This document shows, one piece after another, positions 19,200 to 54,425 of a DNA stretch of 64,000 bases; position 1 is the first letter of the stretch, and each line of letters starts with the position of its first letter. The notes beneath the pieces were generated by a model. The model had not been told where the DNA came from. It saw only the letters and a list, made by a program, of their open reading frames with translations, and made no database searches. The DNA comes from Neoscytalidium dimidiatum. Taxonomy: Eukaryota; Ascomycota; Dothideomycetes; Botryosphaeriales; Botryosphaeriaceae. The stretch is taken from contig CM074705.1 in the NCBI GenBank assembly GCA_037367355.1, forward strand, positions 62,001 to 126,000. Reading direction: 5' to 3'. Position numbers and translations under genes: made by a program.

Positions 19200-22100
19200 A
19201 TGGCAACCACTCCCCTCTCGCTGCGCCGCTACTCCTCCGAGAGCCAGCAGTCGGCCGGAGAGCGCGCCGACATCCAGCCCATAAGCATCCCCTCGCCGCC
19301 CGCCTCGGAGCGGCATCAGTGTAGCCAGTGCTCCAGCAGCTTCCTGCGCCTCGAGCACCTGAAGCGCCATGAGCGCGACCACTGGGACAGCAAGCCGTAC
19401 ACCTGCGGCCTCTGCGGCAAGGGCTTCACTCGAAGGTAACGCGCCACATCCCCAGCCAGGCCTGCCTTGCCTGCAGCTGCCGCCGCTCATCAGTGCTCAC
19501 CCGTGCCCCCCCCCAAAAATAAAGCGATACTCTGAAGCGCCACGAGCACGTCCATGCCGCTGTGTCCTCTGACGGCGAGAACGGCTCCTCGGTGTCCACC
19601 AGATCTCACCGCGGCCGCCATTTCCGCGCATGCCACAACTGCGCCCAGGCCCGGGCCCGCTGCTCGGGCGAGGACGTCTGCGCCCGCTGCCTGTCCAAGG
19701 CCATGGTCTGCGAATACCCAAAGAAGCGCCGGCGCAGCGGCCAGAGCTCGCCCGCCCGCAACGCCTTTGCCTCGCAAGATCCAGCCTGGAGCATCGGCGA
19801 ACTAACGCTCAACACCAGTCACAACTCGCCCCAGTACGGCCTTCTTGACAACGACAACCTCTCGTGCTACTCCTCCAGCAGCGAAACTTTCCCCCATAAT
19901 ATCTCCGGCTACGGCCTCGGCCACGAATCCGACATGCCCAACATATCTCCGCTTGAGATCAATTACGAGCAGCTGTCTCCGCTGGTGGTTGCTAACAGCG
20001 GAGGTCTGATATCACCTGATATAGATACTTTCGACATCGGCCAGCCGTTTCCACCCCAGCCTCCACCCCACCACCACGACCACATGAATCTCAATTTGGG
20101 ATCCATGGGGGACCCGGGTTCCTCCTCCATCAATTGGCTCCCAACCGCATTCAGTGAAGAGATAGACTACGGCGCTCTTTCCGGCATTGGAGTACCGCTC
20201 AAAAGCCCAAGCAACAAGATGCCGGGTGCAGGCATGGACGGCGGCGGAGCTGCGCTGCCCACGCCTGCTGGCATGGATTTTCTGCCCGCCAGCCCCCCAA
20301 ATGGTCGCCGCGGCTCGCATTCACCCGCGAGATCGACGGGGTCTAGCAACTCTAGCACCGAAAGCAATGGCAGGTATTACGCAACAAGCTTCGACGGCGC
20401 AAGAATACCTTTCGTCCGGGGCACCAAGAGACGGAGATCGTTCAACGTTTCCAGCTCAGAGCCCACCCGCTCATCCCTGTTCCGAGACCAATCCGGTGTA
20501 TTTTCGTTCCCTGAGATTTCCGTTCCAATCGACAGTCTGCCGCCTGTGCCAGCGACTGGGCCGGCGATGGACCTCAAAGCGTACGATCGGATAGCGGATG
20601 CATTCCGCCAAGTCTGCCACGGCTTGGGCACTACTTTTGTCCCCTTCAAAACTTTGGCAGTCCCGGGCCCCGCACATCTCAATTACTTCCTGCAGCTCTA
20701 TTACGAGCACTTCCATCCAATACTTCCCATTCTTCATCTGCCCACCCTCAAACTCAACGAGGATGAGTGGGTCCTCGGTCTGGCCGCAGCGGCAATCGGT
20801 TGCAGATACTCAGATTCCGAAGAGCTTCTGACCTTCATAAGACCGATGACCGAATTCTTGCGGCGCGTGGTCGTCATGTCGGTACGTGGCGCGCCCTCGA
20901 GCTATGCGGCAGGCAGAACGATACTGACTCCCTTTAGGTCGAGCACCATCCCCCGCGGCAAATGCCTCTTGGTGTGCTCCAAGCTCTTTTGCTGAACTCG
21001 ATAAACATGCTGTACAGCGGCTCCAGTCGCATGGAGGACAGCGCCTTGAACGACTTCAGCAGGCTCGTCGAAGCAGTGCGCACATGGAAACTCATTCCCC
21101 CGTACGAAACGCCTCCGCAATCCTGGTCCGAGTGGGTGCGGGCGGAAGCGCGGATCCGTCTTGGCTACTCGATCTGGGTGAGTATGGCCAAGGGGGCACG
21201 TCTTGGCTTGGCTGACCGTGTTTTAGATGCTCGATTGCACGCTCGCGTACCAGATGGATCAGAAGCCTTTCCTGAGCATGGATGACCTGCACGCTGCGCT
21301 TCCCTGCAATGAACACCTGTGGGCCGCCAGCAATGAGGAGGAGTGGGCAAGCCTGCGCCGCAATACTGAGCGTACGACACCCAGACTCGGCTCTGATCCC
21401 CGTCAGTCACTGACCTGTTCAGGCAACCCACCCGTCTCGGAAGCGGTACATACCTTGTTCGTCCGCAAGGAGGTGAAGCAAGATATCGGCGAATTCAGCA
21501 GGGTTCTTTTGCTTCACGGAATCTACCATGAGATGTGGACTGTGGCGCGATATCACCGCCGTTCGCTGGCTTCGTGGATCCCCTCGGCCGATGAAGCAAT
21601 GGACAGGAGCGCGCCAGAGTACCAGGAGAAGCCGCAAAATGTGGCAGACAGGAGCATCTACATCCCGGAGAATCCTCTTTATTCGAAATGGCGGAACGCG
21701 GCGTGCGACTGCCTGGACGTGCTGCATTGGGCCGCGAATGCCACAATCGCGCACCACTCGGGCTCTGAACACAACACCGTCTGCCATCTGCACAGCTCTC
21801 GCGTCATCCTACTAACCCCGATCTCTGAAATCGTCGGTCTCGCCAAATCAATGGCGACAAGCGATCGGCAAAGCCTACCACAGCTCACCAAGCTCGAGAG
21901 CAAAGTCTCCCTCTGGGTGCAGAAAGACCAGCACAAAGCGCGCCTCGCCATGATCCACGCCGGAGCTGTCTACTGGCACGTCCGGAGGTTCTCCAAAGCA
22001 GCCTTCTACGAGCCCAGCGCGGTGTTCCTCTCGACACTGGCGCTGTGGGCGTACGCGTCCTACACGTCGCTCACGACCTCCTTCGCCCGCACCGACAGTC

Positions 22101-22480
22101 GCAGCGGCAGCGAGTCGCCGTCGCCAGGCACCTTCACCTCGTCAGACAACATGACGCTCAGCAGCGGTGGCGGCGACGACTACTACGACCACCCGACCTT
22201 CATCCGCCTGGATCGGCCCAATGACGACGAGATGGTGCAGCTGTTTGTGCGCAACGGCGACCCGGGCAAGATGAAGGCCCATGTCTCGGGCGTCGGGAAC
22301 ATCCTATCGCCGCTCGCGCCCGAGAGGATTCTGAGAGAGGGTTGCAAGATCCTCTCTCGCATGACGCTGACGTGGGGAGTGGCGAACGAGCATATCAAGA
22401 TTCTGTCGAACATGGTGGAGCAGATCTCGAATGTCAGGACGCGGGCTTCGGCTGCCTCTGTACAAGGACCGCCGTCTTGA
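19200..22480 (+). CDS. hybrid C2H2 / Zn2Cys6 transcription factor
   Basis: Exons 19200-19435, 19525-20881, 20938-21177, 21227-21371 and 21423-22480 give 1011 residues; the fourth intron (51 nt) is in frame, so retention is possible. Two C2H2 fingers lie near the N-terminus: [21 protein letters not shown] (about 40-60), and one starting CGLCGKGF whose DNA-contacting helix is completed across the first intron as [14 protein letters not shown] Zn2Cys6 cluster follows (about 107-133) with spacing CX2CX6CX5CX2CX6C, then KKRRR, a nuclear-localisation-like basic patch. The middle is Ser/Pro/Gly-rich. From about residue 450 the pattern [16 protein letters not shown] starts a fungal-specific transcription factor domain (PF04082 type). 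Such proteins are nuclear DNA-binding regulators; the target pathway is unknown. Confidence 0.9.
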
Positions 22481-26503: not shown

Positions 26504-27262
<759 letters not shown>

Positions 27263-27705: not shown

Positions 27706-30700
27706 TTACTGATACGTGACCTCCACCTCCGCCGTTACGTCCTTCTCAGTAGGAATCCAAACGATCGAGGCTTTCTTCCCAACGTCATTGTCGGTTCGGA
27801 CCCTGTCATTCGTGCCATCACGCAGTATGTTGACAGCGACCCCGCCCATATCGGTCTCTGCCTCATGCCAGATTACGAGACGGTAGTCATCGCCAACATC
27901 TCGCTTAACCTGTGCATCATCATACTTCTCGGCATCTTTGACTTCGGCGACGCTGCCCTTCCAGTACGTTGAGAGCTTGATATGCCTGCGAGTGACCTTG
28001 GAATCGTCCGTGCCGGTGACTTCCTGGACATTAAGTGAGCATTTATCCGGGCAATACTATTAGGTCAAGAAACGCTTGTTTCGCACCTGTTCGATATCGA
28101 CGCGGCGGAAGTTGCTGCGCGCAGCATTGTCACCGTACTCGTTGTTCGGCTGCGCCTGTGCCTCGTCGACCTTGTCCTTCGGCTGAAGAAAGAGGTAGAC
28201 GTCGTCGGGGGCGCTGCTGCGTGAGACGCCGTCATCCAGGTACATGGAGTACTTGCTTGGACCGCGCTGAAAGTAGTCAGTGGAAATGCTGGTTCCGTTC
28301 AGTACAGGAGACCTACCGATGAGTGGTCGGGATAGATGTTGATCGTGATCGGATTTGCGGGCGCTGAGGGAAGCTCTGGCCTCGTGCGATCGGGCACGAA
28401 GTCTCGAACTTGAATTTGGGGGATGATTGCACCTGGCGAGCGTTAAGAGTCGGTAGATCTGTAGGGCTGGGCGGGAGAGTTACCTTCTCGAATGTACATT
28501 GGACAGACGTAAGGCAGCTGGCCATCCTGGGGGGCAATATGGCAGTCATACGAAATATTGGAACCTCCTTGGACCCTCGGTTGAAGAGCCTCACCTATGG
28601 AGTCATCATAGTGCGGACGAAGGTTCGAGGGGAACCACGAATTGGTCGATGGAAGGTAAATTTCGCGCCTTTCCTGCTTTTGCTCTAGCTGCGGTGCTAC
28701 GAGGATGTCATTCCGCACCATATACTGGCTCTTGTTTGCCCATTCATGCTACTTTTTCATTAGCATAGGTGCTACGCACGGGGTGCTACATGAATTTCTT
28801 GTCCTTACCCTCGAGAAGAGACTGCCGTCCAGAGGATCAGTGATGACGAGGGATCTTGCAATAGGCAATCCTGTGACACTATTCTCAAACATGGCATCGT
28901 ACAGCAGTTGTAGGAGACTGTAGCGGAGGCGTATGTAGTATCTGCTGACCGGCAAAACTGACTGATAGATACCATGCTCTCCATCTGCAACCTCTCTCCA
29001 ATGGTCACGGTACCATTCATCATATCGATATGGCTCCTTTTGAAACTTTAGCTTGGGGCTATTGCCTCAAACGTCGGAGTCGCTCACCTGGAAGTCCTTC
29101 TTCCTCCAATCAACATTTTCTTTGTCCGTGTGCTTCGCACTGTAGTGGTTTCTGCAATCCGGTTAGCCTTGCGATGGTATTTAACGGGAGATACAAACTT
29201 GCCTGAACCAAGGGAGAAGACTGTAGGCACAGTACCAGCGAATCAGCAGCTCCGGATCAGCGAACGCGGTGAGATCTCCTTCGGGTGGCTCGAATCCGCC
29301 CACATCAGCACCCGCAATAGTGACTCCCGCCAGACCAAGAGCAATGACCTGGGCAACGGAAATCTGCAAGAAGTCCCAGGTCGAAGCATTGTCTCCAGTC
29401 CAAAGCCCGGCATAACGCTGAGCACCGGCGTAGCTGCCCCTACCGATGATAAAGTTGCGTTTGCCTTTGCGGATGTCCAGGTGATTGAGACCCTTGAAGG
29501 TTGCCTTGTGCAGGTTGAAGCTGTACAGGGACCAGATCTCAATGGCCGCCTTCTGATCGATTTGATCCGGATCTCTGGCCAACGCTCTGGTCTCACCGGG
29601 CCAGCCGTCGGAATCAAGCATGAGGCGGAAAGGCCACCTGAAGGCACTGATCAGCGGGGAATGCAAAACGTCACAAGCCGGGAAACTCACGACTTCATGT
29701 CTCCGTATCGTTGAGCCATGCAGGGAGATGTCATATCCTGCCAGACGAACTCAAGACCAGTATTGAAAAGGTACTCGTACTGCTTACCCCACCAGTCTCG
29801 AGTCTTTCTCTGGTTAAGATTGGGATAGTATCCGGGACAGCCTTGCTTGTTCCCATAGGAAACGCCACCGCGGAAAAACTGGTTTCGGTCAGCTCCGTTG
29901 AAAGACTCACTGAATTCGTGGTCGTCATCGGGCTCCTCGGGATCACTGGGAACAAAGGGACGCGTATAATACATCTGAGCACCACCGTACTGCATGTAGC
30001 GTTGGTCCCACCAATTGGGCGCAGATGGGTCAATATTGCGGCGATCGAGCACGAAGTGTTTATTGGCGAGGCCTTCGTTCAGTGTGGTGTATTCCGCATC
30101 ACTCTTGGCGTTGATGACGGGAGTGATGTTGGTGCTGCAGCGCACTCCTTTCTTGCGGAGCTCCAGGAACATCTTCTCAGGCTCCGGGAACTTCCCTTTG
30201 TCAATGGTAAAGGTCCGGTAGTCACGTTGGATGTCGACGTCAATATGCATCCCATCTGTGTCTCAGGTAAGCAAATGTTCCTTGGAAGGACTTCGGATAG
30301 ATACCCAATGGAATGCCGTAGTCGCGATATTTCTGAACCGCCTGTTCAACTCGCTGCTGTCGATCGTATCCGTAGCAGCCTTGGTGATTACCAAGAACGA
30401 AGCGCGGCATCAGCCTCGGCCGCCCGATAAGTGATGAGTAGCGCCGGATAACCTCGCTTATGTCGTTCCCGGCAATGAAGATGCCTTGGAAGCCATTGAA
30501 GCGTGTGGCGATACGAACCTGAGTGGTATTAGTTTTCCCAAGATCCACGCAAACGTGCGAGTAGTTGTCGATGAATGTTGCCAACTGCGACATGCTACCA
30601 GGTTCATCAGCATATGCACATGCTAGCGCGAGTTGATGTATTGGCTTACTATCCGGGGTGGCCGTTGACTTCGATAAAGTACGGTTCTATGTATAGTTAG

Positions 30701-31686
30701 TCAAAGTCAACTATGTCGTTTAAGATATCTGACCTGAGTGGTACAGAGGTTCGGCATTCTCGAAAGGACCACGTCCATAGACGTTGTTGTAGCGCATATT
30801 ATCGAAGTCTGCATTTGAAATCAGTTGTCATAGCAGAAATAAGATCATGTTAATGGTGTACTTACTGAAGTAGTTCATGTAGGTGTTGTCCTTGAACAGA
30901 TCTTTGCCACCCTGCTCACCGAAGCCCATGTACCTTGCAGGATCTGGTTTCTCAATAGAAAGGACTATTGCACTGGGTTCCTGATCTGTGTCACGCACTT
31001 GGTACTGTAGAGGCTTCTTTTTGGTCTTCCAGATGACAGCCTCTCCTGATTCCGCGGGCGCAGTGATGGGGAGATGACTGTCCTCATCGTCACGGACATG
31101 CATCTTGAGTTTCCCAGGCGTTTTGATGGTCCGGGTGGCGATGATCCGGAACGGATCCCTCTGAATCCAGAGCTGCACCATGGGATTGCCACTTCCGTCG
31201 ACGGATCTGAGGACATAGTACCGCGGGTTGCTGTCGTCAAACTGAACAGACCAGGTAATACCTTCAGCGCGGTCCAAGATATTGATCATGTTCGACAAAT
31301 TGCCTCTGATAATGGTCCTCCTGTAATGATTTCAGCATAACTATATGGGGAAGATGTTCCGTTACAGCATACGTGTTGTAGTCGGTGAATTCGTGACCTT
31401 CCTTGTAATGCGGATAGAACCTGATGCGCCACACCAACGGACGCATGAATTGGATCAACATGATAGCGCCGGTGTTGAGTCGAAACACTCGGCCATGGCC
31501 GCAAGCCGGATTTTGTTTCTTTCCAGTGGCATCGAGCTGGTCCTTCTCGTTGAACGTGACTGAGTCCGGCCTCAAAGTTCGGGTCAAAAGCTCTTTGTCG
31601 AAGAATTCGTCAGCGGGGATGAAACGATACGGGTCACGATGCTTAGGATGGTCCTCATCCTGAGTTCCAACTGTGGCGTCAGGCAT
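27706..31686 (-). CDS. alpha-1,4-glucan lyase (GH31)
   Basis: Thirteen exons (minus): 31686-31373, 31320-30866, 30808-30734, 30686-30650, 30594-30305, 30255-29691, 29637-29203, 29151-29088, 29036-28809, 28748-28484, 28432-28317, 28266-28087, 28023-27706. All junctions keep frame and give 1113 residues, close to the about 1070-1090 of known lyases. Landmarks follow the algal and Pezizales lyases: MNYFNFDNM, FIDNYSHVCVDLGKTN, CSTNITPVI, EFVWQDMTSP with the nucleophile Asp (about 564), GLWTGDNAS with the acid/base Asp (about 661), and YLDDGVSRSSAPDD. GH31 hydrolases usually read WxDMN at the nucleophile; here DM is followed by Thr, as in the lyases. The family splits alpha-1,4-glucans from the non-reducing end by elimination, giving 1,5-anhydro-D-fructose. 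There is no signal peptide, so intracellular glycogen is the likely substrate. The frame stays open upstream of the chosen ATG but holds no other ATG. One intron is GC-AG. Confidence 0.92.
29152..29202 (-). other. GC-AG intron within glucan lyase gene
   Basis: On the minus strand the donor is CAG|GCAAGT and the acceptor is TTGCAG. Removing 51 nt joins LLPWFR to NHYSAKHTDK in frame, as family relatives require. Reading through hits TAA. The strong CAG/AAGT context is typical of GC donors. Confidence 0.85.
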
Positions 31687-33500
31687 GTTAGGTAAGTTGA
31701 ACGTTCCGATGGTCTTCGTGTTCTGGTATTGAAAGTGTCCTCGAGCGCGAGGGGATATGATATCGATCGGAATGAAGCCGCGTAGCTTGGAGGGGAGAAC
31801 AATTACAATGAAGTCTCAAGGTGGATCATGGCTCGTCGGTGGTGCTATGGTATGGTTTTGAACAATTCTAGATTTAATTAAATAAATTGAAGAGCGGGGA
31901 AAGGAAATGGGGACGCGTGTCTCAATACTGAGTGCAGGTGGGGAGACGATTCGAGATTACGCAGATTCAATTGCACATGAGAATTTGTAGTCTTCCCCGT
32001 GGGTGTGTGTGTAACTTGGCGTCTTGGCTAATCCGTATTTACTGCATTTCATCTAAACGGGTAAGGGATGGTCGTGAAGGGCGCACTAATTACTGTGTCC
32101 GACCGTATGCCCCGCACAAGATCTACAACAATTCCGAGGACGAGCATCTGTACGATGCCATTGACTGGGGAATCACCTGTAAGTAAGCGAACACACATAT
32201 CACAAGGCAGTTATATGCAGGAAGGAGTCAATTTGAGGAGAAGGAGAGGGAGTTGATCTTGTAGGTAATAGAATTCGACTCATGCTTGTGGGATAGGGAT
32301 TGTCGCCACCACGCAACCTGTTTTAGGGATTCGTCTAGGGTAGAAGAAGCATGCGACCTGAAGATCGGAGAGATAGGATCCTGCAAATTGCTTGCTAAAG
32401 GCAATTGAATCTAATGGTAAGAATGGCTTGCTTGGCCCTAGAAAATGGACCCCGCACGATGCTTAATCTACAACTGTCCGTATGCTGCATGAGTGACTGA
32501 ATCCGGTTATCGCGTAACATGGCGGCTGGACATACCCGTCGTTGCATGCGTCCGCAACGCAGAATATTCCCCAATCGAGCAGGATGACGTGCGCTTGTAC
32601 ACCATACCACTGCATGTACTGATTCATATTCTTAGCCGCAAGATCGTATGGGCAAGGACTCTCATTGGCGGTTCGTTGCAACTTCTACAATGTTGCCTCG
32701 AGCGTGGTAGACGCTTGGGAAAGGACCTGTTTTGCTATCATACGCTGGACTAAATTGGGAATAGATTCGCTCGTAGCACTAAAATGTGGAAGTTTCGCAA
32801 ATTTCGTTCAACCTTTGTAGCAGCTTGTGCGAGTGAGGCATATGCAGCCAAGCAGCACTACCCGTTACCAGGACCGGGGAAAATGCAGAGAATCGACATC
32901 TGCATACTCATGATCTAGACTGAGCCTTAAGCACGGCTATGGGCGAGAGCTGAGCTGCAGACTGCGTTCCACATATGCGTGGGGCTTACTACGCAGTGTC
33001 AGCCAGCCCCTCGCGTCCGCCCCGCCCGCCAAGTGCGCATGGCTCCGAATGTAGAAGCACGTCGATGCAGTGGCTGCTCATAGCGTTGGAATCTTGAACA
33101 CCACGACATGTCTATTCACTTGCATGTAATTTCACCTTTATATGACACTAGTTCAGACAGACCCCGCAGTCGGTGCTACTATCATGCTGTAAGCGCTTAG
33201 TTGCTCGTATTCGCGCCATTGCGTGGGGATCAGAACGAGAACGAACAGGGCGAAAACGGAATATCATGCATAATGGTTTCACAGAAACGGGATCCTCCGC
33301 TTCTAATCATCTTGCTTCTTTCCTCATATTCACATGCTATGTGGGCGAAAAAGGTGCGCTGATCATCGGTCGATGATGATACTCGTAGCTGAATGCTAGC
33401 GAAGCCCCAAAGGGCTTGCTTTTCGTACTTATAGCTGCATCGGCTTCACGAGTGGGTTTGCTCATCTTTAACAAGCCTTCAGAATATCAATAATCACATC
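31687..33500. promoter_or_regulatory. shared divergent promoter region of the lyase/dehydratase pair
   Basis: A 1.8-kb spacer between two start codons pointing away from each other. GCGGGG (31894-31899) and GTGGGG (31939-31944) fit the SYGGRG consensus of the carbon-catabolite repressor CreA, 210-260 bases upstream of the lyase start. Glucose repression would suit a glycogen-degrading route, but this is inference from short motifs. A 72-codon minus-strand frame at 32463-32681 is listed separately. Confidence 0.4.
32463..32681 (-). other. unexplained Cys/aromatic-rich open frame
   Basis: The frame (72 codons) includes AAKNMNQYMQWYGVQAHVI, followed by a segment with four cysteines. It looks like real protein rather than random translation: balanced composition, aromatic residues at intervals and few rare residues. 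The upstream sequence has an in-frame stop and no good start, and no splice donor extends it convincingly. It may be a relic exon of a lost gene between the lyase and the dehydratase. I do not recognise the family. Confidence 0.25.
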
Positions 33501-36419
33501 ATGACCACTCGACTTACTCCAAAAGGCCAGGCTCCAATCCTTGAGCCATCATTCTCCTCCTCAATCATCGAAGACAAACGCAGTGACGGATATTGGGTTG
33601 AGACGTTTCAGTTCAGCAAAGAAGACCGTGTCCCTGGAGTCATCACGTCAGTGCTCTTCTAATACATAGCTTCATGATCTTTGGACTTACTGTCGGCTCC
33701 CAACAGATCTGGGCTTGTTTCCGGTGTCATTTCCTATCTTGAAAATCCCCTAGCCGCAGCAGAGTACAGGGGAAAGGACAAAGCCTCTGTGCTGAAAGAT
33801 GGTAAAAAGACATCTACAGAGGGCTCTGAACATGTGCTAAGATCTTCGCACAGCTGAATGGACCAAGTACGAGCTCGGAAAATTTGATTCACCAGTCGCT
33901 GTTGTTCCTGTCGACATTACAGGTGATGGCTTGACTGATTTGGTCATCTGTCACGACTACGGTCCACACATGCTGCGGTGCAACCAGCGAGGCGGCTTTG
34001 TCACTTGGCTCGAGAACCCAGGCAGAGACGGTCTCAAAAACGGCTACTGGAAGGAGCGCTTTATTGGTCGATGGCCGGCAATGCACAGGATCAAAGCCGG
34101 GCATTTTACACAGAAGTCAGTTGTCTGATCGAGTCTATCCGGTTGAACAATCTGACGAACATACAGATCATTTGTCGAGGTCATTGCCGCTTCTGTTGTC
34201 TACGGCCCTCATGACAAGGCTACTCCTATTCCGGTCATTAGGTTCCAAGCACCGGAAAAGGTGTTGGAGGCGTGAGTAACCTGTCTTTGCTTCTGAATGA
34301 TAATTCTGACATCTTAAGGAATGAATGGCCCCATGATGTGATTGACGATGAAAATTTTACTGTGATCCACGAGGTCACCCAAAAGAAGTAACACACCCAC
34401 ATCCATTCAAACAAAAAAAATAGAGCGCGTACTCAAGCTAATGTTTTCACCAGATTTGATGGTCCTAACGGACTGGATTCGATGCTAATCGCATCCCGGG
34501 AAGGTTTGACTAGGCTCTATTATGAAGATAGTGTCTGGCGACGTGATCATATCACCGATGGTGAAGCTCGAGAGGCACGCCAGCTGCTCAACAGCGAGTT
34601 CCCCGGGTCAGGTGATTACTGGGGCACTGGTGGGTCCGACGCAGGACGCGTCGGAGCCGACCCATTTGCATATATCGCAACTGTTGAACCCTTTCACGGG
34701 AACATTGTCTGTGCTTACACAAAGGTAGACCAGGGAATCAAAAACAGCAAATGGCAGAGATATGTGCTTGACGTCTTTGGGACGCCTGGTCAACAGCTGA
34801 AGTACGGAGACGGTCCGCTGCACTACGTGGTCTGCGGTGACTTCGATGGTAAGCACCAGCACCCCAGGAATTCAGATAAGCCCGCCATGTTCTAAAATAT
34901 TTCCAGGAGATGGTGATGATGAGTTCCTCGTATCAGCGTTTGGTCCAGTTGAATACGACGAGAATTGGCTGCCCATCAAGGTCCGTATCGACATCAACGC
35001 TTGAGAGACCATCTACTAACCATGAATGATAGCCTACTGGAGCCCCCGATCCAAACAAAGTAAGTCGTAATGTAAACCCTTTTATGCCTGTACACTAACA
35101 CTATCTAGGGAATCATGTATTACAAGCCCATTGACCTGAGGAATGGCATATTTGCAAAGTGGAAAGTATCGGGAGACTCTTCAGCTCGTCTTGCCATCGG
35201 GTACTCTCATTTTCCTGCTTCCGTTACTCTTTTACTTTGATTAATGACAATTATACAGCGATTTCACCGGTACCGGGCGCCTGGACTTTGTTTCCATCAA
35301 GTACAACGTCATGAATTATTACGAAGAGCCATCGCCCGTCGTCTCACTCTTCGTCAACGATTTTGCGCCGCGAAACAACATTGACTCACTCTCACCCATT
35401 GTTCCCAGCTTGTGGGGCAACGAGGGCATACTCTATCTGCGTGACCCTGCACGTTATTCAACCAAAGACACGTTGAAGCCTGGTCTGGATGCTGACAGAC
35501 ACATCCTGCAGCCGGCACAGCTGCAGCTCATCAGCGTGGCTGACTTCGAAATCAGCGTGGAGAGTTATCCCAGAGGCTACCAAGGTATTCAGATAGACTA
35601 CGGTGATGGCATCAAGGTCATTTACGGGTCGATTACCTTGCAGAATGAAGTAAACGAGGTCCGCACGCCTTTCTCGGTGAAGCCATTCACATCATTCAAC
35701 ACTGCCTCCCAAGCGGCGTCCACTCAGGCCACCGCTGATGATAAGACCGGTGCCATTCTCCTTCGTCTCAAGCCTTGCTCTGACAACGCCACGTCCGCCA
35801 CCTGGCCGAAAGCGGACGACGTCCCAGTGAAGACGCTCCTCGATCTCTCTGACCAAGGCGTCTCGCTGGCACCGCTGGAGTTCGTCAAAGTCGAGGACCT
35901 CTCCTGGGGCAGTGATTTCAAGGGCGTCGACTTTTACAACCTCTCCGGCTTTCATTTCCGCTTCCTGGAGACTGGGCAGGCCATCGGCCACATCCAGTTT
36001 TGGACTGCCAGTAAGCATATCCCACAATGCTTATCGTGAAAGAGTTAGCTAAAGGTTCCGTAGGCACCAATGTCAACTGCGGCGTCCACAACCACAGCCA
36101 CGACATCTTCGCCGAGATGCACATCTCGCTGTCCGCCGGCACGGGCAATGGCGGCATGGGCCGGCTGCAGGATAAGTACAATGATCTGTCAGAGACTGAG
36201 ATCAAGCAGCTTCCTGACAGCGCATTCGACCGACTGGTTCTGAAGTCGCTGGAGGAGCACGGCGGTATGTGGGAGCGCGATAGCTACGGCCGGCCCATCC
36301 GACGCCGGGACAAGGCCCTCGCGTATCCATGGCACAAGTGGCAGGCCGGTGATGGCAGCGCTGGTGTGGATGTGTGGATGGCAGTCGAGCTCAATCCGGA
36401 CTTGTATCCGGAGAAGTGA
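33501..36419 (+). CDS. aldos-2-ulose dehydratase-like (1,5-anhydrofructose/glucosone dehydratase)
   Basis: Eleven exons: 33501-33646, 33707-33801, 33854-34115, 34167-34271, 34319-34387, 34454-34848, 34907-34980, 35033-35059, 35109-35200, 35259-36010, 36064-36419, giving 790 residues. The first about 450 residues read as a beta-propeller. They carry FG-GAP/VCBS-like calcium loops: DITGDGLTD (about 101), DFDGDGDDE (about 355) and DFTGTGRLD (about 423). The rest is beta-rich and cupin-like, with HNHSHDIFAEMH (about 680-692) offering His, His, Glu and His metal ligands. A propeller joined to cupins is the architecture of the basidiomycete aldos-2-ulose dehydratase/isomerase. That enzyme turns glucosone into cortalcerone and 1,5-anhydro-D-fructose into microthecin through ascopyrone M. 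Placement beside a glucan lyase, the source of anhydrofructose, strengthens the call. No signal peptide is seen. Confidence 0.75.
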
Positions 36420-36844: not shown

Positions 36845-37906
36845 CTAAGCATTCCCGCAGGCGAACGTCATATTCAGGCTGTTTGTCGTGGTCGCATACT
36901 CGATCTGAACCGGCTGACCAGCAGCCTTGGGCGCCGCAGCCGTGAACCTGCATGCGCCGCCAAACTGGAGCTGCACCTTCGACTCCGCGGCACCGAAACG
37001 CGCAGTAGTAGACTGCTGATCGTCCCCATTGACACATGTACCAGTGACAGCGTTATCCCTGACACCACACTGCAGCGTCGTCTTGGTCGCCTTGCCGCCG
37101 CCGTTGCGCTTCTGCCACTCAAACGCCTTGTCATTCGGCCAGACCTCGTACGCGTCGGTAGCCGCGGCCTCGTTCGCCTCGATCGGATGCACGGCCATGA
37201 TGCGGATTCCGGCGCGCTTCATGACGGGGAGCTCGTTGCGGGCCCAGTCGCTGCTCTGCACCATGCGGCCGTCGGTGAAGGGGTCGCTCGCCTTGGTCAG
37301 GAACTCCTTCGGCGCGCGGATGGCCACCGTGACGAAGTCGCTGCTAGTGTTTGCCGCCACCTCGCCGAAGGCGACCGAGAAGTTTCCCCAGAAGAGATCC
37401 CATTGCGGGTTGGTTGGAAGCGCCTGCGGGTGGTTGATGACGTCGTTGCCCACGGACAGTTCGAGCGTTTTGAGGCCCAATTTCTTGGCTGCGTTCTGGC
37501 CCAGGTCGAACGGCACGCCGGACCAGAACATGGCTTTGTTCTTGGGAGGGGGTGTGATGTGCTTTGCAGCGTCGGCGGGGCTGTTGATTATGATGGCCGA
37601 CGACGCTTGGCGGGGTGAAAAGATCGAAGTGAAGTTGAATAGGTCTTCCGGGGTGATGTTGATGCCGAAAGGATTCTCTCCGGTATTGCTGGGAGATTCC
37701 TTGCCGCTAGTGGGTTTCCCATTGTTTGCGGGAGTTTGAGCCTTGGGCTTGCTCGTGCCAGGGCGTCCCTTCGCGGCGAGAGCGGAGACGTCCTGAGGAA
37801 TTGGAACGGGACCTGCGGTGACAAATCCAATCAGGAAGAATGTGAGGGCCAGAAGCCTCCCTATCACTAGCCGAGCGTGGCTTGCAGAAAGACTTGAGGG
37901 GTGCAT
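36845..37906 (-). CDS. secreted protein with CD38/ADP-ribosyl-cyclase-like residue pattern
   Basis: Single exon, 353 residues. Residues 1-31 form a signal peptide ending FVTA, then a Pro/Lys/Ser-rich linker to about 100 with glycosylation sequons. Residues 120-240 show, in order and spacing, AMFWSG (Trp128), KTLEL (Glu149), LFWGNFSVAFGE (Trp173) and RNELPVM (Glu225). In the CD38/Aplysia cyclase family the catalytic set is Trp in (L/F)WSG, Glu in TLED, Trp in FW and Glu in the VExxNL/ELPNL segment, with the same order and similar gaps. Those enzymes cleave NAD to cyclic ADP-ribose, ADP-ribose and nicotinamide. The match is by motif, not alignment, and the animal proteins' many disulfides are absent here. 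The last 110 residues form a separate domain with four cysteines (280, 291, 319, 350). Secreted NAD glycohydrolase activity is the working inference. Confidence 0.6.
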   Translation of the reverse strand: MHPSSLSASHARLVIGRLLALTFFLIGFVTAGPVPIPQDVSALAAKGRPGTSKPKAQTPANNGKPTSGKESPSNTGENPFGINITPEDLFNFTSIFSPRQASSAIIINSPADAAKHITPPPKNKAMFWSGVPFDLGQNAAKKLGLKTLELSVGNDVINHPQALPTNPQWDLFWGNFSVAFGEVAANTSSDFVTVAIRAPKEFLTKASDPFTDGRMVQSSDWARNELPVMKRAGIRIMAVHPIEANEAAATDAYEVWPNDKAFEWQKRNGGGKATKTTLQCGVRDNAVTGTCVNGDDQQSTTARFGAAESKVQLQFGGACRFTAAAPKAAGQPVQIEYATTTNSLNMTFACGNA

Positions 37907-40900
37907 ATTCCTTGTTGGGCAAAGAATGGAAATGTGTCTAAGGCGCTGAAAGAGGGTAAATGAATGTCTTTGTCTAGCGAGCGATGAGTTGTAAGGAGTG
38001 AAGGAACTTTAGCAACTGCTTTGAGTAGCTGGATATAGTTGTCACAACCATGAGTACTTATACTGACTCCCCCTGGGCACAGTCAACGGAGATCAGATCT
38101 CTGCCAAGTTCGTAAGTAAGAGAACCTCAGTAGCCACGCCGCTTCCCTGTTTGCTCGTGAAAATATTTCCAGACTGCCAATGTCATGCGAAGTCTGGTGT
38201 TGAGACTATGGGCTAAGGCCACCACCGTTTTGAAACGAGCGGTAGATCAGTGCACCCCGGAAATGGCCTCTGCGCATTGCAACGAATCATTTAGTACGAT
38301 ACGACTTAACTCTCTTTAGGTAATACATATTTTTAGGCACACAGGATCACCACTTCAAAACAGGATGCCAAGATGGGGACTATCGGTTCATCGCTTGTAA
38401 TGGTAGCCGCCTACATGCGGTCATATCCAGTCTGAACCAACTCCTGAACTCCGGCGTACGGAAACGGAAACGAAAATCACACCATGCAATTCCGGCTTCC
38501 AGCGGCAATCTCATATGCGCAGACCACTACCACTCGGCGTTTCAGTGACAACACCTTTGCTTCCACCATGGCCTGAGGAAAACACTGGACTATGTCGGAG
38601 ATGTAATGAAGCATGCGAAGCGACCAGCAGCATATTCCGATGTGCATAGCTTCCTGGCTCTTCGGACAACTGGACGTACAGTTGTGTTCACGAGGGTGGA
38701 GCTGTAACAGCGGAGACCGACGGATTGCTTCACCGTGCAGCGTGGCATCGCCAACGATCTCAGCTTAGGGTATGTCCTATAGCTACTACTAATCCTGACA
38801 GCGAATTGACTGCATCATATTCAGTAAGTGAGCAGAACATCTACCACTACAATTACTCGTTTCAGGTCAGGCTCGGCCTCGTGTTGGTACATGCCACGAG
38901 TCAACATCATGCTAACAGCCAGGGAAAAACCTACTTAACCACCTGCCTCACCAATCAAAAACTCACAGCACCGACGAATCACGCCCTTGGATCCTTCGTA
39001 TAGTCTGCCCTGTACTATTGCGCACACTGCGAAAATTGCAGTGCTGTTGCTCTCGTAAGACTGCGCTTGGGCAAAGGATCTACGGATTTATTTGACCAAC
39101 CGCTCACTTCCGCACAATTGCTGCAGTGGGCGGCGTGTCCACATCTTGTCGGAAGGCCTCCTTAGCACGGTTGTCTCACCCTTTCCGCCAAGCTGGCATC
39201 TTCGGTCCTGCACTATTTACTGCACCTTTGGGTCTCTCATTTCTGTAGACTAAACGCGGATGGAATTGCCAGTCTACCTGCTGCAACTTGGCACCAAACA
39301 TTCTCGGAACATCTGCTGTTGCATGAACTTAGATTAAAGCAGCGCGAGATGCCTTGAATCCCCTTATTTCAGGTGGATATCAAAAACCTACATTTAACAG
39401 TATCAAGGTGAAGAGAACAGTGCCTGCATCCTTTTGTGAGATGATGCAACAAACCATGCGCGAGTGAGTCCCTCAACAGATGCCATTTCTGAGGATGGTT
39501 ATGCTGCCAAGGGTAGCACTAGAGAAGAGCCGCAGAACATATCCACAAACAAGACGCTTGTAGCCCGTACCCTCCGAAGTAGTCGAAGGTAGTCCTGATG
39601 AGCTAGAGACGGAATCTATATTGCCAGATACCCCTTTGCTGAAGTATAGCTATCTATCACCTCTGACCGTCGATAATGGTTATGTGCATAAGGACAAAAT
39701 TTGACGAGGTAGATTACTCAAGGTTATCCCTGCCCAAAACTCGGGAACGCCTTCTTTAACTTCCATTTCCAGGTAAGTGGATCGCGGACCGCGTCGGCTC
39801 CGGCCCGTAGCTGTCGCATTGTACCGAGGTTCCTAGCATGTCATGACTCTTTCTTCCTATCTTATCTACGCGTTGGCATATTTGTAGAAACTACTTATTT
39901 AGCCTTAGTTGTCCCCGCAGGCTGCAGTCGGCCTTCTACCTCTGAATGGTTCTATAATATCGCCCCGGCGCCTATTCACGCTAGCTACAGTGTCTCTTTA
40001 AGTACTTTGGTCGGAATTTTACAATCAGCTATGCTATTTGGTATTGCAATGTATATTTTGTACGATACTCGTGTACGTAATGGGAAACTCTAGGAAATGT
40101 TTTCATTAATCAGGACATTCGAGGAGGATATGGACGCCTGTCCATTGAAATATGTAGGATGGGTTGTGTGTTTCCCAGTTGGCTACATTTCTCGATATTA
40201 TCAGTGTGATGCACAATCTACTTATTAGCATCGAAAGCTTGAGTTTGCCAATAAGCCAAGCATGCATTTTATCGTCTAGACATATAGTAAGCCGATTATC
40301 TCGTAAGCCCGTAAGGAATAATTACCACACCTCTTTAGTGGCTCACAGACGGTATGAGAGTTTTTTTACTTTTACTTTTCATATGGACTTTGTTACCTTT
40401 CGTACTACGTAGAAAAGTAGGAAGCACGCTGTTTGACAAGTTCAGGATATTTTCTAGCCTTTGGTAGAGCGCGTGCGCGTCGCTTTTAAACAAGGTTCAA
40501 CTACAGGACATTATCTCTTTTCCTTTCAAAGACGCTGTAGAACTTCGATAGGGCGCAAAGCCAGCGAGGCTGCAGGAAGGCTCACACAAAATCGGCAACA
40601 GTTTTGTAGAGTCAGCTGGCGCATATGTCTAGGCTATTGCGTGTACAGCATTGCTCAATGCCTATTTTAAGACAGTGGCGTCAAATAATCTTCATCCCAC
40701 TACGCCCCACGCTTACCGAGTCATGGCGGTGCAAAATCGTAGAGACGGGATTCAATCCGGTAGCCAGTCAGCTACGACAATCAGACATTTAAAGAATATT
40801 TACCCTTTTCGTTTTCGCCCAACTGTCTTCGATCTCGCTGGCTATGCATGTTGTCCTACCCTGCCTTTCTTGCCCAAGAGCTGCCAAGGACGGCTTAGAA

Positions 40901-46314: not shown

Positions 46315-47683
46315 CTAGTGTGCGCGCCGCTGTACCTCCTCCTTCTGGTCAGCTTCGCCTAACTTATCAAGCTCTTCCTGTATAGTTATTATTCGCTGCT
46401 GTAATTCCTGTAGCTCTGCCCCTAATCCCGCCCTCTTTTCCTGTCGCTGCTCAAAGGTCAACTCCGGTTTAACCGAAGGCACAGGAGCTACCCGTTTCCG
46501 TCGCCTGATCTCGCGTCCCTTCATTCGCATCGGTCGATCGATACTATGTAGCTTATAGTAGAGACCGCAAGCATTGCATAACAAGCGTCCAAATCTATCC
46601 CATCTCCAAAGTGTCGTTATAGAAGTGCCACAGTTGGCACAGGCGACGGCGGTGTCTGTGCCAACTGAAATCGCAAGCCGTTTCTCATATCGATTCTGAA
46701 CAGTGTATCTCTCGGATCGTTCGCCAACACCGATCTGAAGTGGTTCATTCGAGACATCGGCGGAAGAGGAGTTGGATCGAACGGCATTCGAAATGCGGTT
46801 ATTGTAGACTGGGCAACCTACGCAATCTTGCTGGCCACCAGTGCCGTTACAACGACCACCACCGGGACAGATCCCCGGTGCTGGTTCGTGGTCTCCATGA
46901 GTAGAACATTCGTTTTTAGAGTTTGTTTGAACAGTTTTGGCTCGCCATTGCGATTTCCTCGCGCTGAATTCTTGATCGAGAGAAGTAGTGGTACCCCTTT
47001 TTTGGTGTCTTGTTAGGTCCACAGGACGTGACTTATTCCATGCCCTTAGATACAGACCACAAGCATTGCATATAAGTTCTCCCGCAGGCGATCTCCTCCA
47101 CAGGGGAGTTTGCGCTGTGCCGCAGTTTCTACCTGCAATTAAGGTAGTGCTCAAGGTGAAAGGCGTGATAAGAGCCATACCTACAACGCTGGCCGGAACA
47201 AAGTGTATCTGTAATATCCGATTCCGGAAGAGACGGGCGAGAGGAGGAACCAGGACTGTGAGGCCGCGGATCACGATCGTCGTTGGAGCGGCTTGGGTCA
47301 TGTTCACGAGAATCGTTCTTTGTTACTTTCTCATTGCAGATGGCGACGAAGAAGGTTCGCTCCTCGTGCTCCATCGATGGCAAGTGATCGGACTCGTGGT
47401 TCGTATGATCCTTTGGGTGTTGATCTTTGGCAGCTTCCGAGGCGTCAGAGACCTGCTTCGGCCTAGGGTCTCGCCCTAGGACATGGTGAGCTGGAATCCG
47501 GTTAGCCTACTGAGCGGTGTTGTTGAACTTACCATCGCGTAATATATCCTGCGCGGAGATGCCGGGCATGATCGCTGTCGGAGGCGTTTGAAGCCGTTGT
47601 TCGGAGAGATGAGTCGAAAGGTTATCGTGCAGACACCGGAGAATAGTCAGAGCATAGAATGGAGAGGGGTTTGGAGGTGACAT
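46315..47683 (-). CDS. sreA: SreA/URBS1-type GATA repressor of iron uptake
   Basis: Exons (minus) 47683-47533, 47475-47181 and 47128-46315 give 419 residues. Two GATA zinc fingers of the CX2CX17CX2C type are present. The first starts CRNCGTAQTPLWRRSP, is split after its first cysteine by intron 2, and ends CNACGLY. The second starts CANCGTSITTLWRWDR and ends CNACGLY. Between them sits the diagnostic cysteine-rich region, CPGGGRCNGTGGQQDCVGCP, which in SreA, SRE and Urbs1 senses iron. The C-terminus has a leucine/glutamine-rich coiled coil (about 375-410). The family represses siderophore synthesis and iron-uptake genes when iron is sufficient, by binding ATCWGATAA-like sites. At 419 residues it is shorter than the 530-590 usual for the family, mainly in the C-terminal part. 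Second-finger arginine and leucine contacts look intact. Confidence 0.93.
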
Positions 47684-52601: not shown

Positions 52602-54425
52602 CTACTGATGGTGAACCTTCCGCAACCTTATCTTATCGATTAGACCACTGACCTCCTCGGGACTCTGCTTCCATTGCCCATCTGCAGTAAGTAGGTCATC
52701 ATTCATTTTGTTCCACGTGGCCCGAATCAGCTTTTCTTTCGCATCAGAGCGGGCCGTCACCTTGACTTGGTATGGCGGGAACATCCGAGCCAGTCCGGGT
52801 CGGCTGTTCTTGACATCGATGTCTATTTCGTTCCCCGACGCATCCTTTGCTTTTTCTATGTTGAAAGCCCAGAGCCAATTAGAAATGGCTAGATAAATGC
52901 TGCGTTCAGCAAGGTGTTGACCAGGGCAAATACGGCGGCCAGCCCCAAAGGTGAACAGCTTGGTGGCAGCACCCAATTGATCTCCCGTTGCCATTTCGAT
53001 CTGGCCTTCCCATCGCTCCGGCATGAATCGATACGGCTCTGGATACACATTGGGATCGTGGTGAATAGCCCAGGTATTGTAGAGCAGGCCCGTTCCTTGA
53101 GGGATCCTATATCCTCTCCATTCAAAGTCTTTGGTTGCCGCATGTGGAAGGCCGAGAGCTCCGACAGTAAACCAGCGATGCAGCCTATATGAGATATATT
53201 GTTTAGATTTCTTGTTTCAAAATTTAACTGGTATATGTCAGACTCACTCTTGTTCCATTTGCCGGACGTACACCAAGTCTACTGCATCCTCATCTCGGGG
53301 CAAGCGGTCAAAGCCAACAACACGATCGATTTCTATGTACGGTCAGACCGCGAGAATGAACTACACTTGAACCGTCTAAGCCTCACCTTCTTGTGCCTTG
53401 CGCTGCGTATCAGGATAGAGAGCCATAGCCGCAATCCAGGCATGAATGCTGTTTGCAGTCGTCTCCGTGCCGGCCTGGAGACATCATATTAGTCTCTGTC
53501 GTTATATGTCAAAATTGATCAAGGCAATCATACTCCGGCTAAGATTTCCAGTATCCCAGCCGCCTGCGTATCATTCAACTGCAATACTTCCTGATTCTCT
53601 CGGACTGCCTGGATAAAAGACGGTAGTGTTGTGTTCTGAGCCTTCTTGAAGTGCACGAGCGTGTTTTCCTCATACTCCTTGAAGATCTTTTGAGCTTCTC
53701 TCTTGGGACTGAAGAGAGAGGCAGGAAGCTTCAGTAAGAGGGGATAGAAGTTCACCCAGTTGTACTGGATATTGAACTTCGTTGCCGCCAAGAATGTCTT
53801 CATAATCTGCCCCACGATAGGGTTATCCGAATTCGGCACGCGGTAGCCTACTGTCATGCTCATGGAAACAGAATTAGCATATCTCGCAATATGCTTCGCG
53901 AAATTCTCGGGAGTATCTAGCATATCAAGAAGTAGCTTCGTCCCTTCCAGAATCTGATACGGAAGGTATTTTTTAGAAGCGGTGACGTTAAGCATCCCAT
54001 GCCACTGGCGCCGGGCATTGCGCCAATTAGGTCCGTTCTCCTGAGCAGGTGAATAACCACCTCTACAGATCATATTAAGAGGCAAATTCGGACGAGTTGA
54101 GCTGTTCTGGCCTTGCTTAATAAATAATTCGTGGGCAGCGCTTTGCTCATTGACAACTATGTACGGAACGGTGCCTTTCATGAAGGAAAAGACGGGCCCG
54201 TATTTTTGAGCCCATTCCTGGAATTTCCTTTCTTGGAAGAACGCGGGCAGCTGTGTCGTTCAATCGCAAGGTTTTCAAGCGCATGGATGGAGACTATACC
54301 TGTCGCAAATTCCCAAAGATAGGCTCAGTTGGAGGCCCCGGTGGTAGGTTTGTAGGGCGGTGGCCTAAACCCAAGATATAATAGAGGCTGAAAGATACTA
54401 GAGCAGTGAGAAGTATGAGAATCAT
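52602..54425 (-). CDS. cytochrome P450 monooxygenase
   Basis: Exons (minus) 54425-54300, 54250-53534, 53474-53387, 53332-53248 and 53184-52602 give 532 residues. The N-terminus MILILLTALVSFSLYYILGL is a membrane anchor followed by the proline hinge NLPPGPPTEP. The I-helix motif AGTETT spans intron 2. The ExxR helix reads ELHRW, completed across intron 4. The heme loop is FTFGAGRRICPGQ with the Cys ligand. The layout, with LGLPHA after ExxR and this hinge, resembles fungal P450s of the CYP64/CYP620 kind that decorate secondary metabolites; the substrate is unknown. It should be ER-anchored and need a P450 reductase. The gene is intact and lies head-to-tail against the broken NRPS module, suggesting a former common pathway. 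Confidence 0.9.

What the first reader, a model, noticed from the sequence alone, without database searches (positions are those of the whole stretch)
27706..36419. Divergent glucan lyase / aldos-2-ulose dehydratase pair: an anhydrofructose pathway locus in an ascomycete
The minus-strand GH31 gene carries lyase-type motifs (WQDMT, GLWTGDNAS, MNYFNFDNM). The plus-strand neighbour has the propeller-plus-cupin build of aldos-2-ulose dehydratase. Established chemistry links them: lyase makes 1,5-anhydro-D-fructose from alpha-1,4-glucan, and the dehydratase makes ascopyrone M and microthecin from it. Finding both next to each other, both apparently intact, suggests a dedicated glycogen-to-antimicrobial-sugar module. 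I am not aware of a clear description of such a paired locus.
Basis: partly seen in the sequence, partly recalled or inferred. Interest (0 to 1): 0.88.

Follow-up and report, generated by a model that had tools for sequence, protein, structure and literature searches.

The report
Paired anhydrofructose-pathway enzyme genes
Two neighbouring fungal genes look like a two-step production line that turns stored starch-like sugar into unusual sugar derivatives; the same pairing recurs in other fungi and, in a split form, in some bacteria, but no activity has been tested here.

Summary
Minus strand 27706-31686 is an intact 13-exon GH31 gene (1,116 aa); divergently, 33501-36419 is an intact 11-exon gene (790 aa) for an aldos-2-ulose dehydratase/isomerase (AUDH). 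The GH31 protein groups with the Morchella and Gracilariopsis alpha-1,4-glucan lyases (100/100), apart from 8 glucosidase-side sequences, and carries WQDMT at the nucleophile (38 of 38 lyase-clade rows, 0 of 8 others). The second protein keeps the residues aligned with Phanerochaete AUDH's propeller and cupin sites but lacks its C-terminal part. The pairing recurs: 19 of 59 named fungal AUDH hits share a contig with a listed lyase hit, in 18 species. No pyranose oxidase passes cut-off here. Best reading: alpha-glucan -> 1,5-anhydrofructose -> ascopyrone M -> microthecin. Activity, co-expression and any antimicrobial role are untested. The enzymes are known kinds; the conserved locus and its split bacterial form were not found in the open papers searched.

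The parts
27706..31686 (-). GH31 alpha-1,4-glucan lyase-type gene, 13 exons: 31373-31686, 30866-31320, 30734-30808, 30650-30686, 30305-30594, 29691-30255, 29203-29646, 29088-29151, 28809-29036, 28484-28748, 28317-28432, 28087-28266, 27706-28023; 1,116 aa, no signal peptide seen by eye
   Evidence: hand-spliced model; 91% identical over 100% to Macrophomina protein P0093; best PDB hit of the whole protein 2x2h lyase; lyase clade in tree
29729..29743 (-). WQDMT, nucleophile motif shared with characterised lyases
   Evidence: 38 of 38 lyase-clade rows have it, 0 of 8 glucosidase-side rows; position checked; that its Asp is the nucleophile is recalled
29382..29408 (-). GLWTGDNAS, acid/base motif (general GH31, not lyase-specific; role recalled)
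31687..33500 (.). 1,814-bp divergent intergenic region, possible shared promoter
   Evidence: gap between the two start codons; no regulatory test was made
33501..36419 (+). AUDH-type gene, 11 exons: 33501-33646, 33707-33801, 33854-34115, 34167-34271, 34319-34387, 34454-34848, 34907-34980, 35033-35059, 35109-35200, 35259-36010, 36064-36419; 790 aa
   Evidence: hand-spliced model; 90% identical over 100% to Macrophomina MPH_09991; only PDB hit 4a7k
34084..34086 (+). His158 codon, equivalent of Phanerochaete His155 in the propeller site
   Evidence: alignment, position; role of His155 recalled from Claesson et al. 2012
36087..36122 (+). HNHSHDIFAEMH cupin metal motif (His681, His683, Glu690, His692)
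   Evidence: alignment, motif check, position

Best explanation
The locus is a two-gene anhydrofructose-pathway module. The GH31 protein is a cytosolic alpha-1,4-glucan lyase that cuts glucose units off glycogen (or maltodextrin) by elimination, giving 1,5-anhydro-D-fructose. The AUDH-type protein dehydrates this at its propeller zinc site to ascopyrone M and rearranges it at its cupin site to microthecin. Shown here: gene structure, family placement, conserved active-site residues, recurring linkage. Inferred: both reactions in this fungus, the glycogen substrate, the cytosolic place, microthecin as end product. Least certain: the purpose (chemical defence, stress or overflow metabolism).
For: Lyase clade 100/100 with Morchella lyase (P0182) and 2x2h, WQDMT in 38 of 38. 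AUDH: 4a7k is the only PDB sequence hit; the fold model of the Macrophomina orthologue matches the three 4a7 entries first, E 8.8e-60 to 9.7e-59; residues aligned with His155/215/295/337 and His630/632/Glu639/His641 are kept. 19 of 59 named fungal AUDH hits share a contig with a listed lyase hit, 18 species; paired proteins diverge in parallel (Mantel r 0.84 over 20 pairs with the window, 0 of 5,000 permutations as high; this shows co-inheritance only). 6 of 28 strong bacterial propeller genomes have a lyase-type GH31, and in 6 of 6 it lies at the propeller locus. Fungal AUDH propellers group with 4 of the 6 lyase-linked bacterial ones, support 82/86. AUDH_Cupin matches only here in this genome and no pyranose oxidase passes its cut-off, so glucosone is not the obvious substrate. 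Chemistry lyase -> 1,5-anhydrofructose -> ascopyrone, microthecin in fungi: PMC12441222, passages read.
Against: No activity, transcript or metabolite data. The window GH31 sits in a 22-row subclade beside, not inside, the 7-row one holding the characterised Morchella lyase, so its activity is transferred across 42% identity. With the catalytic part alone as query a maltase-glucoamylase outranks 2x2h. A second lyase-type gene on contig C4 (59% identical) has no AUDH_Cupin match on its contig. 40 of 59 named fungal AUDH hits have no listed lyase on the same contig, and Calocera cornea and Camillea tinctor list the two on different contigs (only 120 of 526 lyase hits were listed, one name per cluster). 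In the 20 pairs, a GDN[AS]S pattern is missing in 2 lyases (Kalaharituber, Escovopsis) and FHG in 2 AUDHs (Cercophora, Thelonectria). Two of 3 genomes with a lyase among 386 of the cyanobacterial phylum show no propeller. AUDH's C-terminal part is missing.
Confidence: 0.8

Rival explanations
1. Same enzymes, different purpose or end product: the pair is a stress, overflow or redox route (ascopyrone P or another 1,5-anhydrofructose derivative), not an antimicrobial one.
For: One paper describes the pathway as operating under stress in fungi and red algae, possibly in starvation (PMC6629992, passages read). Among 20 window ORFs scanned for Pfam domains, the transporter and regulator-type matches lie 5 to 21 kb from the pair and nothing ties them to it.
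Against: The cupin motif, assigned (recalled) to the microthecin-forming step, is kept in 20 of 20 pairs.
Confidence: 0.35
2. AUDH acts on glucosone from a pyranose oxidase (cortalcerone route) and the lyase is only a neighbour.
For: AUDH also uses glucosone (recalled; a cited title on cortalcerone from pyranose oxidase plus AUDH was seen); 11 of 28 bacterial propeller loci lie next to a GMC oxidoreductase.
Against: No TIGR02462 match above cut-off in this genome (4 weak partial matches); linkage with the lyase recurs in 18 other named fungi; the GMC-linked bacterial loci show no split cupin, 0 of 11.
Confidence: 0.07
3. The GH31 protein is an ordinary alpha-glucosidase with at most side lyase activity.
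For: Databases name many members 'alpha-glucosidase'; a maltase-glucoamylase is the top PDB hit of the catalytic part alone; a title in the reference list of PMC12441222 reports 1,5-anhydrofructose made by a GH31 alpha-glucosidase.
Against: Tree and WQDMT motif; none of the five other non-lyase GH31 proteins of this genome put in the tree has WQDMT.
Confidence: 0.05

Closest known systems
Fungal alpha-1,4-glucan lyases (EC 4.2.2.13, GH31), e.g. Morchella vulgaris Q9UVZ1 (P0182)
   Same: Same clade, WQDMT, full length, 42% identity over 92%
   Different: Sister subclade; the 10 contig-sharing lyases that were put in the tree (of 19) all lie in the window's subclade
Phanerochaete chrysosporium aldos-2-ulose dehydratase/isomerase (PDB 4a7k)
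   Same: Propeller plus cupins, aligned candidate catalytic and metal residues kept
   Different: Window protein aligns only to residue 731 of 900, so the C-terminal (lectin, recalled) part is absent; genome shows no pyranose oxidase above cut-off
Anhydrofructose pathway of Anthracobia melaloma (lyase, anhydrofructose dehydratase, ascopyrone tautomerase; Yu et al. 2004, title seen in a reference list only)
   Same: Same proposed chemistry in an ascomycete
   Different: Described there as purified enzymes; no gene cluster seen in the papers searched; whether its dehydratase is this gene is not known from any call
Bacterial propeller-cupin-lyase loci (L015, L016, L017, L023, L025, L033)
   Same: Lyase-type GH31 beside the propeller, plus a cupin half
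   Different: AUDH is two genes; cupin about 240 aa (in L025 only about 145 residues match); gene order varies

Membership tests
alpha-1,4-glucan lyase (EC 4.2.2.13, GH31) | Phylogenetic place with characterised lyases, apart from glucosidases | tested here: met
   100/100 branch, 46-row tree; long branches noted for 2x2h and several glucosidase-side rows
alpha-1,4-glucan lyase (EC 4.2.2.13, GH31) | WQDMT-type nucleophile motif and the acid/base GDN motif | tested here: met
alpha-1,4-glucan lyase (EC 4.2.2.13, GH31) | Releases 1,5-anhydrofructose rather than glucose | not testable with these tools
   needs an enzyme assay
aldos-2-ulose dehydratase/isomerase | Seven-bladed propeller followed by cupins | tested here: met
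   4a7k sequence hit over both parts; fold match of the 90%-identical orthologue; TM only 0.48, so domain packing in the model is unsure
aldos-2-ulose dehydratase/isomerase | Propeller His155 and cupin His/Glu set | tested here: met
   window His158, 220, 307, 349; His681, 683, Glu690, His692; in 40 aligned fungal, animal and unnamed rows these columns are 90-100% conserved
aldos-2-ulose dehydratase/isomerase | C-terminal lectin domain (P. chrysosporium form) | tested here: not met
   window protein is 790 aa and aligns to residue 731 of 900; not a catalytic part, so only the P. chrysosporium sub-form fails
aldos-2-ulose dehydratase/isomerase | Converts 1,5-anhydrofructose to microthecin | not testable with these tools
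   needs an enzyme assay
Anhydrofructose-pathway gene pair | Linkage found beyond one family of fungi | tested here: met
   19 of 59 named fungal AUDH hits, 18 species; bacteria 6 of 28
Anhydrofructose-pathway gene pair | Co-expression | not tested
   no transcript data in these tools

The most novel reading that the evidence does not exclude
The lyase-dehydratase partnership is older than the fungal gene: bacteria hold it as three genes (propeller, cupin, lyase), and fungal AUDH arose by fusing the propeller and cupin genes of such a locus. The same propeller dehydratase is fed by three alternative makers of 2-keto sugars: a glucan lyase (1,5-anhydrofructose from glycogen), a GMC oxidoreductase (glucosone-type sugars), and a UDP-GlcNAc-2-epimerase-family protein that would eliminate UDP from UDP-glucose to give 2-hydroxyglucal, the enol of 1,5-anhydrofructose. 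Among the 28 loci seen, the split cupin occurs with the first (6 of 6) and third (11 of 11) and not with the second (0 of 11).
Probability: 0.25. Interest if true: 0.8.

Novelty: new variant of a known kind. Interest (0 to 1): 0.6.

Why it matters
As far as the papers searched and my recall go, the anhydrofructose pathway is known mainly from purified enzymes in a few fungi and red algae. A recurring gene pair gives it a genetic handle in ascomycetes, names a candidate gene for the ascomycete anhydrofructose dehydratase, and predicts which genomes can make ascopyrone M and microthecin. The bacterial split form suggests that some cyanobacteria, Paenibacillus and others may run the same chemistry, and that the two AUDH reactions can be carried by separate proteins, which makes the two-site mechanism directly testable.

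Tried and rejected
Rejected: alpha-glucosidase identity (tree); glucosone as main substrate; chance linkage (11 of the 19 shared contigs are under 350 kb; bacteria); no formal probability was computed. Led nowhere: literature on the paired locus. Searches listed no paper that described it; passages (not whole texts) of PMC9061262, PMC11650716, PMC6629992, PMC12441222, PMC4795551, PMC8023676, PMC5863803 and PMC11046441 were read. One search was swamped by an unrelated acronym (20 of 2,657 listed). Only open-licence PMC papers are held; look-ups 19, 25, 26 and 69 (three papers: the lyase structure, the 2016 lyase review, the GH31 subfamily paper) found nothing held, so 'not found' is limited to that library. 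Not done: fungal genome context (only contig lengths, names and some locus tags were available), promoter analysis, signal-peptide prediction, regulation. Rows left out: the tree used 29 of the 120 listed lyase hits and, besides the window gene, 6 GH31 loci of this genome (C4, C1, C9 twice, C11, C8); matches on C7, C12 and a third C9 locus were not included. In one search the L023 propeller row was out of frame and is not counted, and cupin halves were joined for 4 of 6 bacterial loci. In one search only the 7,995 candidates sharing most words were scored.
Full report
What is there. The window is bases 62001-126000 of contig 11 of a 43.76-Mb, 40-contig genome. Its closest named protein relatives are in Macrophomina, Diplodia and Botryosphaeria or Neofusicoccum, so it is most likely a member of the Botryosphaeriaceae (family recalled). 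I spliced both genes by hand from the sequence and rechecked the coordinates. The GH31 gene runs 31686 to 27706 on the minus strand with 13 exons and 1,116 aa; one intron uses a GC donor (GCAAGT). The AUDH-type gene runs 33501 to 36419 on the plus strand with 11 exons and 790 aa. Both are open throughout. Independent Macrophomina models match at 91% and 90% over the full length, which supports the splicing.

The GH31 protein. The best PDB match of the full protein is alpha-1,4-glucan lyase 2x2h, E 1.3e-47; with the catalytic part alone as query it ranks second after a maltase-glucoamylase, so the PDB search alone does not settle the matter. A maximum-likelihood tree of the catalytic region (46 rows, 431 columns) does better: 38 rows, among them the window protein, the Morchella vulgaris lyase and 2x2h, are separated from 8 glucosidase-side rows (three PDB alpha-glucosidases and five other GH31 proteins of this genome) with 100/100 support. 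All 38 carry WQDMT; none of the 8 does. Long branches (2x2h and several glucosidase-side rows) make the inner order unsure, and the place of 2x2h rests on the motif as much as on the tree. The window protein lies in a 22-row fungal subclade next to the 7-row one that holds the Morchella lyase. The genome has one more lyase-type gene on contig C4, 59% identical, with no AUDH_Cupin match on that contig.

The AUDH-type protein. Phanerochaete AUDH is the only PDB sequence match, E 2.3e-104. A fold model of the Macrophomina orthologue (28-sequence alignment, mean pLDDT 85.9, pTM 0.67) matches the three AUDH entries first at E 8.8e-60 to 9.7e-59, far ahead of the next hit at 1.7e-9; TM is 0.48-0.49, so the domain packing in the model is unsure. 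In an alignment with 38 of the 92 relatives and six bacterial propellers, Phanerochaete His155, His215, His295 and His337 correspond to window His158, His220, His307 and His349 (90, 97, 95 and 100% conserved among the 40 non-bacterial-locus rows), and cupin His630, His632, Glu639 and His641 to His681, His683, Glu690 and His692 (95, 95, 97 and 97%). The four propeller His are kept in 5 of 5 readable bacterial rows; in the 4 bacterial cupins joined there, the second His column reads Gln in 2. That His155 is the proposed catalytic residue, and that dehydration happens in the propeller and isomerisation in the cupin, I recall from Claesson et al. 2012, which I did not read here; it is cited in PMC4795551 and PMC8023676 (passages). 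The protein aligns only to residue 731 of 900 and so lacks the C-terminal part.

Recurring linkage in fungi. Nineteen of the 59 agree in species and exact contig length with a listed lyase: Macrophomina, Diplodia intermedia, Lepidopterella, Lasiosphaeris, Fusarium flagelliforme, F. austroafricanum, Colletotrichum truncatum, C. musicola, Dactylonectria, Xylariomycetidae FL2044, Tricladium (two pairs), Cercophora, Monosporascus, Thelonectria, Jackrogersella, Kalaharituber, Escovopsis and Tuber brumale. Eleven of these contigs are under 350 kb, the smallest 40,437 bases; in two cases the locus tags are consecutive (DL765_009768/009769, OQA88_11656/11655) and in a third two apart (SLS58_009886/009884, where the lyase model is short). 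On the multi-megabase contigs, same-contig is weak evidence. Against: 40 of 59 have no listed lyase on the same contig, which a representative-only, truncated list cannot decide; Calocera cornea and Camillea tinctor list the two on different contigs. In the 20 pairs with the window, WQDMT and the cupin motif are found in 20 of 20, a GDN[AS]S pattern in 18 and FHG in 18. Distances between the paired proteins run in parallel (Mantel r 0.84, 0 of 5,000 permutations as high); shared ancestry of the species alone would also give this.

Bacteria. Their surroundings within the fetched flanks fall into three groups without overlap or remainder: 6 with a lyase-type GH31 plus a small gene; 11 with a GMC oxidoreductase plus a xylose-isomerase-like TIM-barrel gene and no such small gene; 11 with a UDP-GlcNAc-2-epimerase-family gene plus the small gene. 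None of the 40 weak loci, some of them on short contigs, matched any of these queries. The lyase search over the 28 genomes gave 6 with a strong match (E at or below 1e-40), 6 of 6 at the propeller locus; one also has a weaker second GH31 match elsewhere. The small protein is most likely the cupin half of AUDH: for 10 of 10 tested, AUDH_Cupin is the best Pfam family, but with E from 2e-4 to 0.33 and always below Pfam's cut-off; profile comparison gives E 1.5e-12 over 96 columns around the HN...E.H...YPWH motifs; its fold model (pLDDT 85.4) matches AUDH 4a7k first, E 3.1e-8, though other cupins follow from 2.4e-7. Among 386 genomes of the cyanobacterial phylum only 3 have the lyase at E 1e-60; two of these have no propeller match but do have cupin sequence beside the lyase, in one of them only an 81-residue match. 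So lyase with cupin sequence is seen in 8 of 8 lyase loci, lyase with propeller in 6 of 8, the 6 having been found through the propeller. In a propeller tree (rooted arbitrarily) the fungal and rotifer proteins group with 4 of the 6 lyase-linked bacterial ones (82/86, not strong); the Vibrio and Gastranaerophilales ones lie elsewhere on long branches.

How it most likely works. A lyase removes glucose units from alpha-1,4-glucan as the enol of 1,5-anhydrofructose; in fungi this is turned into ascopyrone and microthecin, described as antibacterial (PMC12441222, passages). Neither window protein begins with an obvious signal peptide (by eye; no program was run), so intracellular glycogen is the likely substrate. 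This genome holds AUDH_Cupin only here and no pyranose oxidase above the curated cut-off (4 weak partial matches), so 1,5-anhydrofructose from the neighbour is the likeliest substrate. Both reactions in this fungus, the end product and the benefit remain inferred.

Novelty and score. Each enzyme and the chemistry are known. The recurring lyase-AUDH locus and the split bacterial form were not found in the nine paper searches named in Tried and rejected, which cover open-licence PMC papers only. I rate it a new variant of a known kind, interest 0.6: it gives a little-explored pathway a clear genetic handle, but the biochemistry it predicts is expected. The three-source view of the bacterial loci, including the guess that an epimerase-family protein makes 1,5-anhydrofructose from UDP-glucose, would be much more surprising; the one such protein compared is a close relative of ordinary UDP-GlcNAc 2-epimerase (E 2e-101), which argues for caution.

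Noticed in passing
L019, L021, L022, L026-L032, L034: Eleven bacterial loci (ten actinobacterial, one Pseudomonas) combine an AUDH-like propeller, a split AUDH-type cupin and a UDP-GlcNAc-2-epimerase-family gene; possible UDP-sugar route to the same substrate.
   Followed up: partly
L009-L014, L018, L020, L024, L035, L043: Eleven bacterial loci combine the propeller with a GMC oxidoreductase and a xylose-isomerase-like TIM barrel, four of them also with a glycogen-debranching-type gene; possibly a glucosone-type route.
   Followed up: partly
P0067, P0068, P0071, P0072, P0075, P0077: Bdelloid rotifers (Rotaria) encode AUDH relatives; in P0067 the cupin HNH motif reads RNL, so the second site may be lost.
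   Followed up: partly
P0085: A 1,331-aa protein (eukprot entry, Mesen1 id) with an alpha-amylase domain ahead of a full AUDH; a natural fusion or a gene-model error.
   Followed up: no
own genome C4:1945040-1948520 (L083, L091): Second lyase-type GH31 gene, 59% identical over most of its length, mostly in one long open frame, with no AUDH_Cupin match on that contig.
   Followed up: partly
   Followed up: partly
window 26537-27262: GH11 xylanase gene just left of the lyase (PF00457).
   Followed up: no
window 36848-38008, minus: Secreted-looking (by eye) ORF right of AUDH, no Pfam match.
   Followed up: no
window 6421-6894, 19523-22477, 46318-47322, 52605-54259: An MFS-transporter piece, weak fungal transcription-factor-domain matches, a GATA factor and a P450 farther out; no sign that they belong to the pair.
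   Followed up: no
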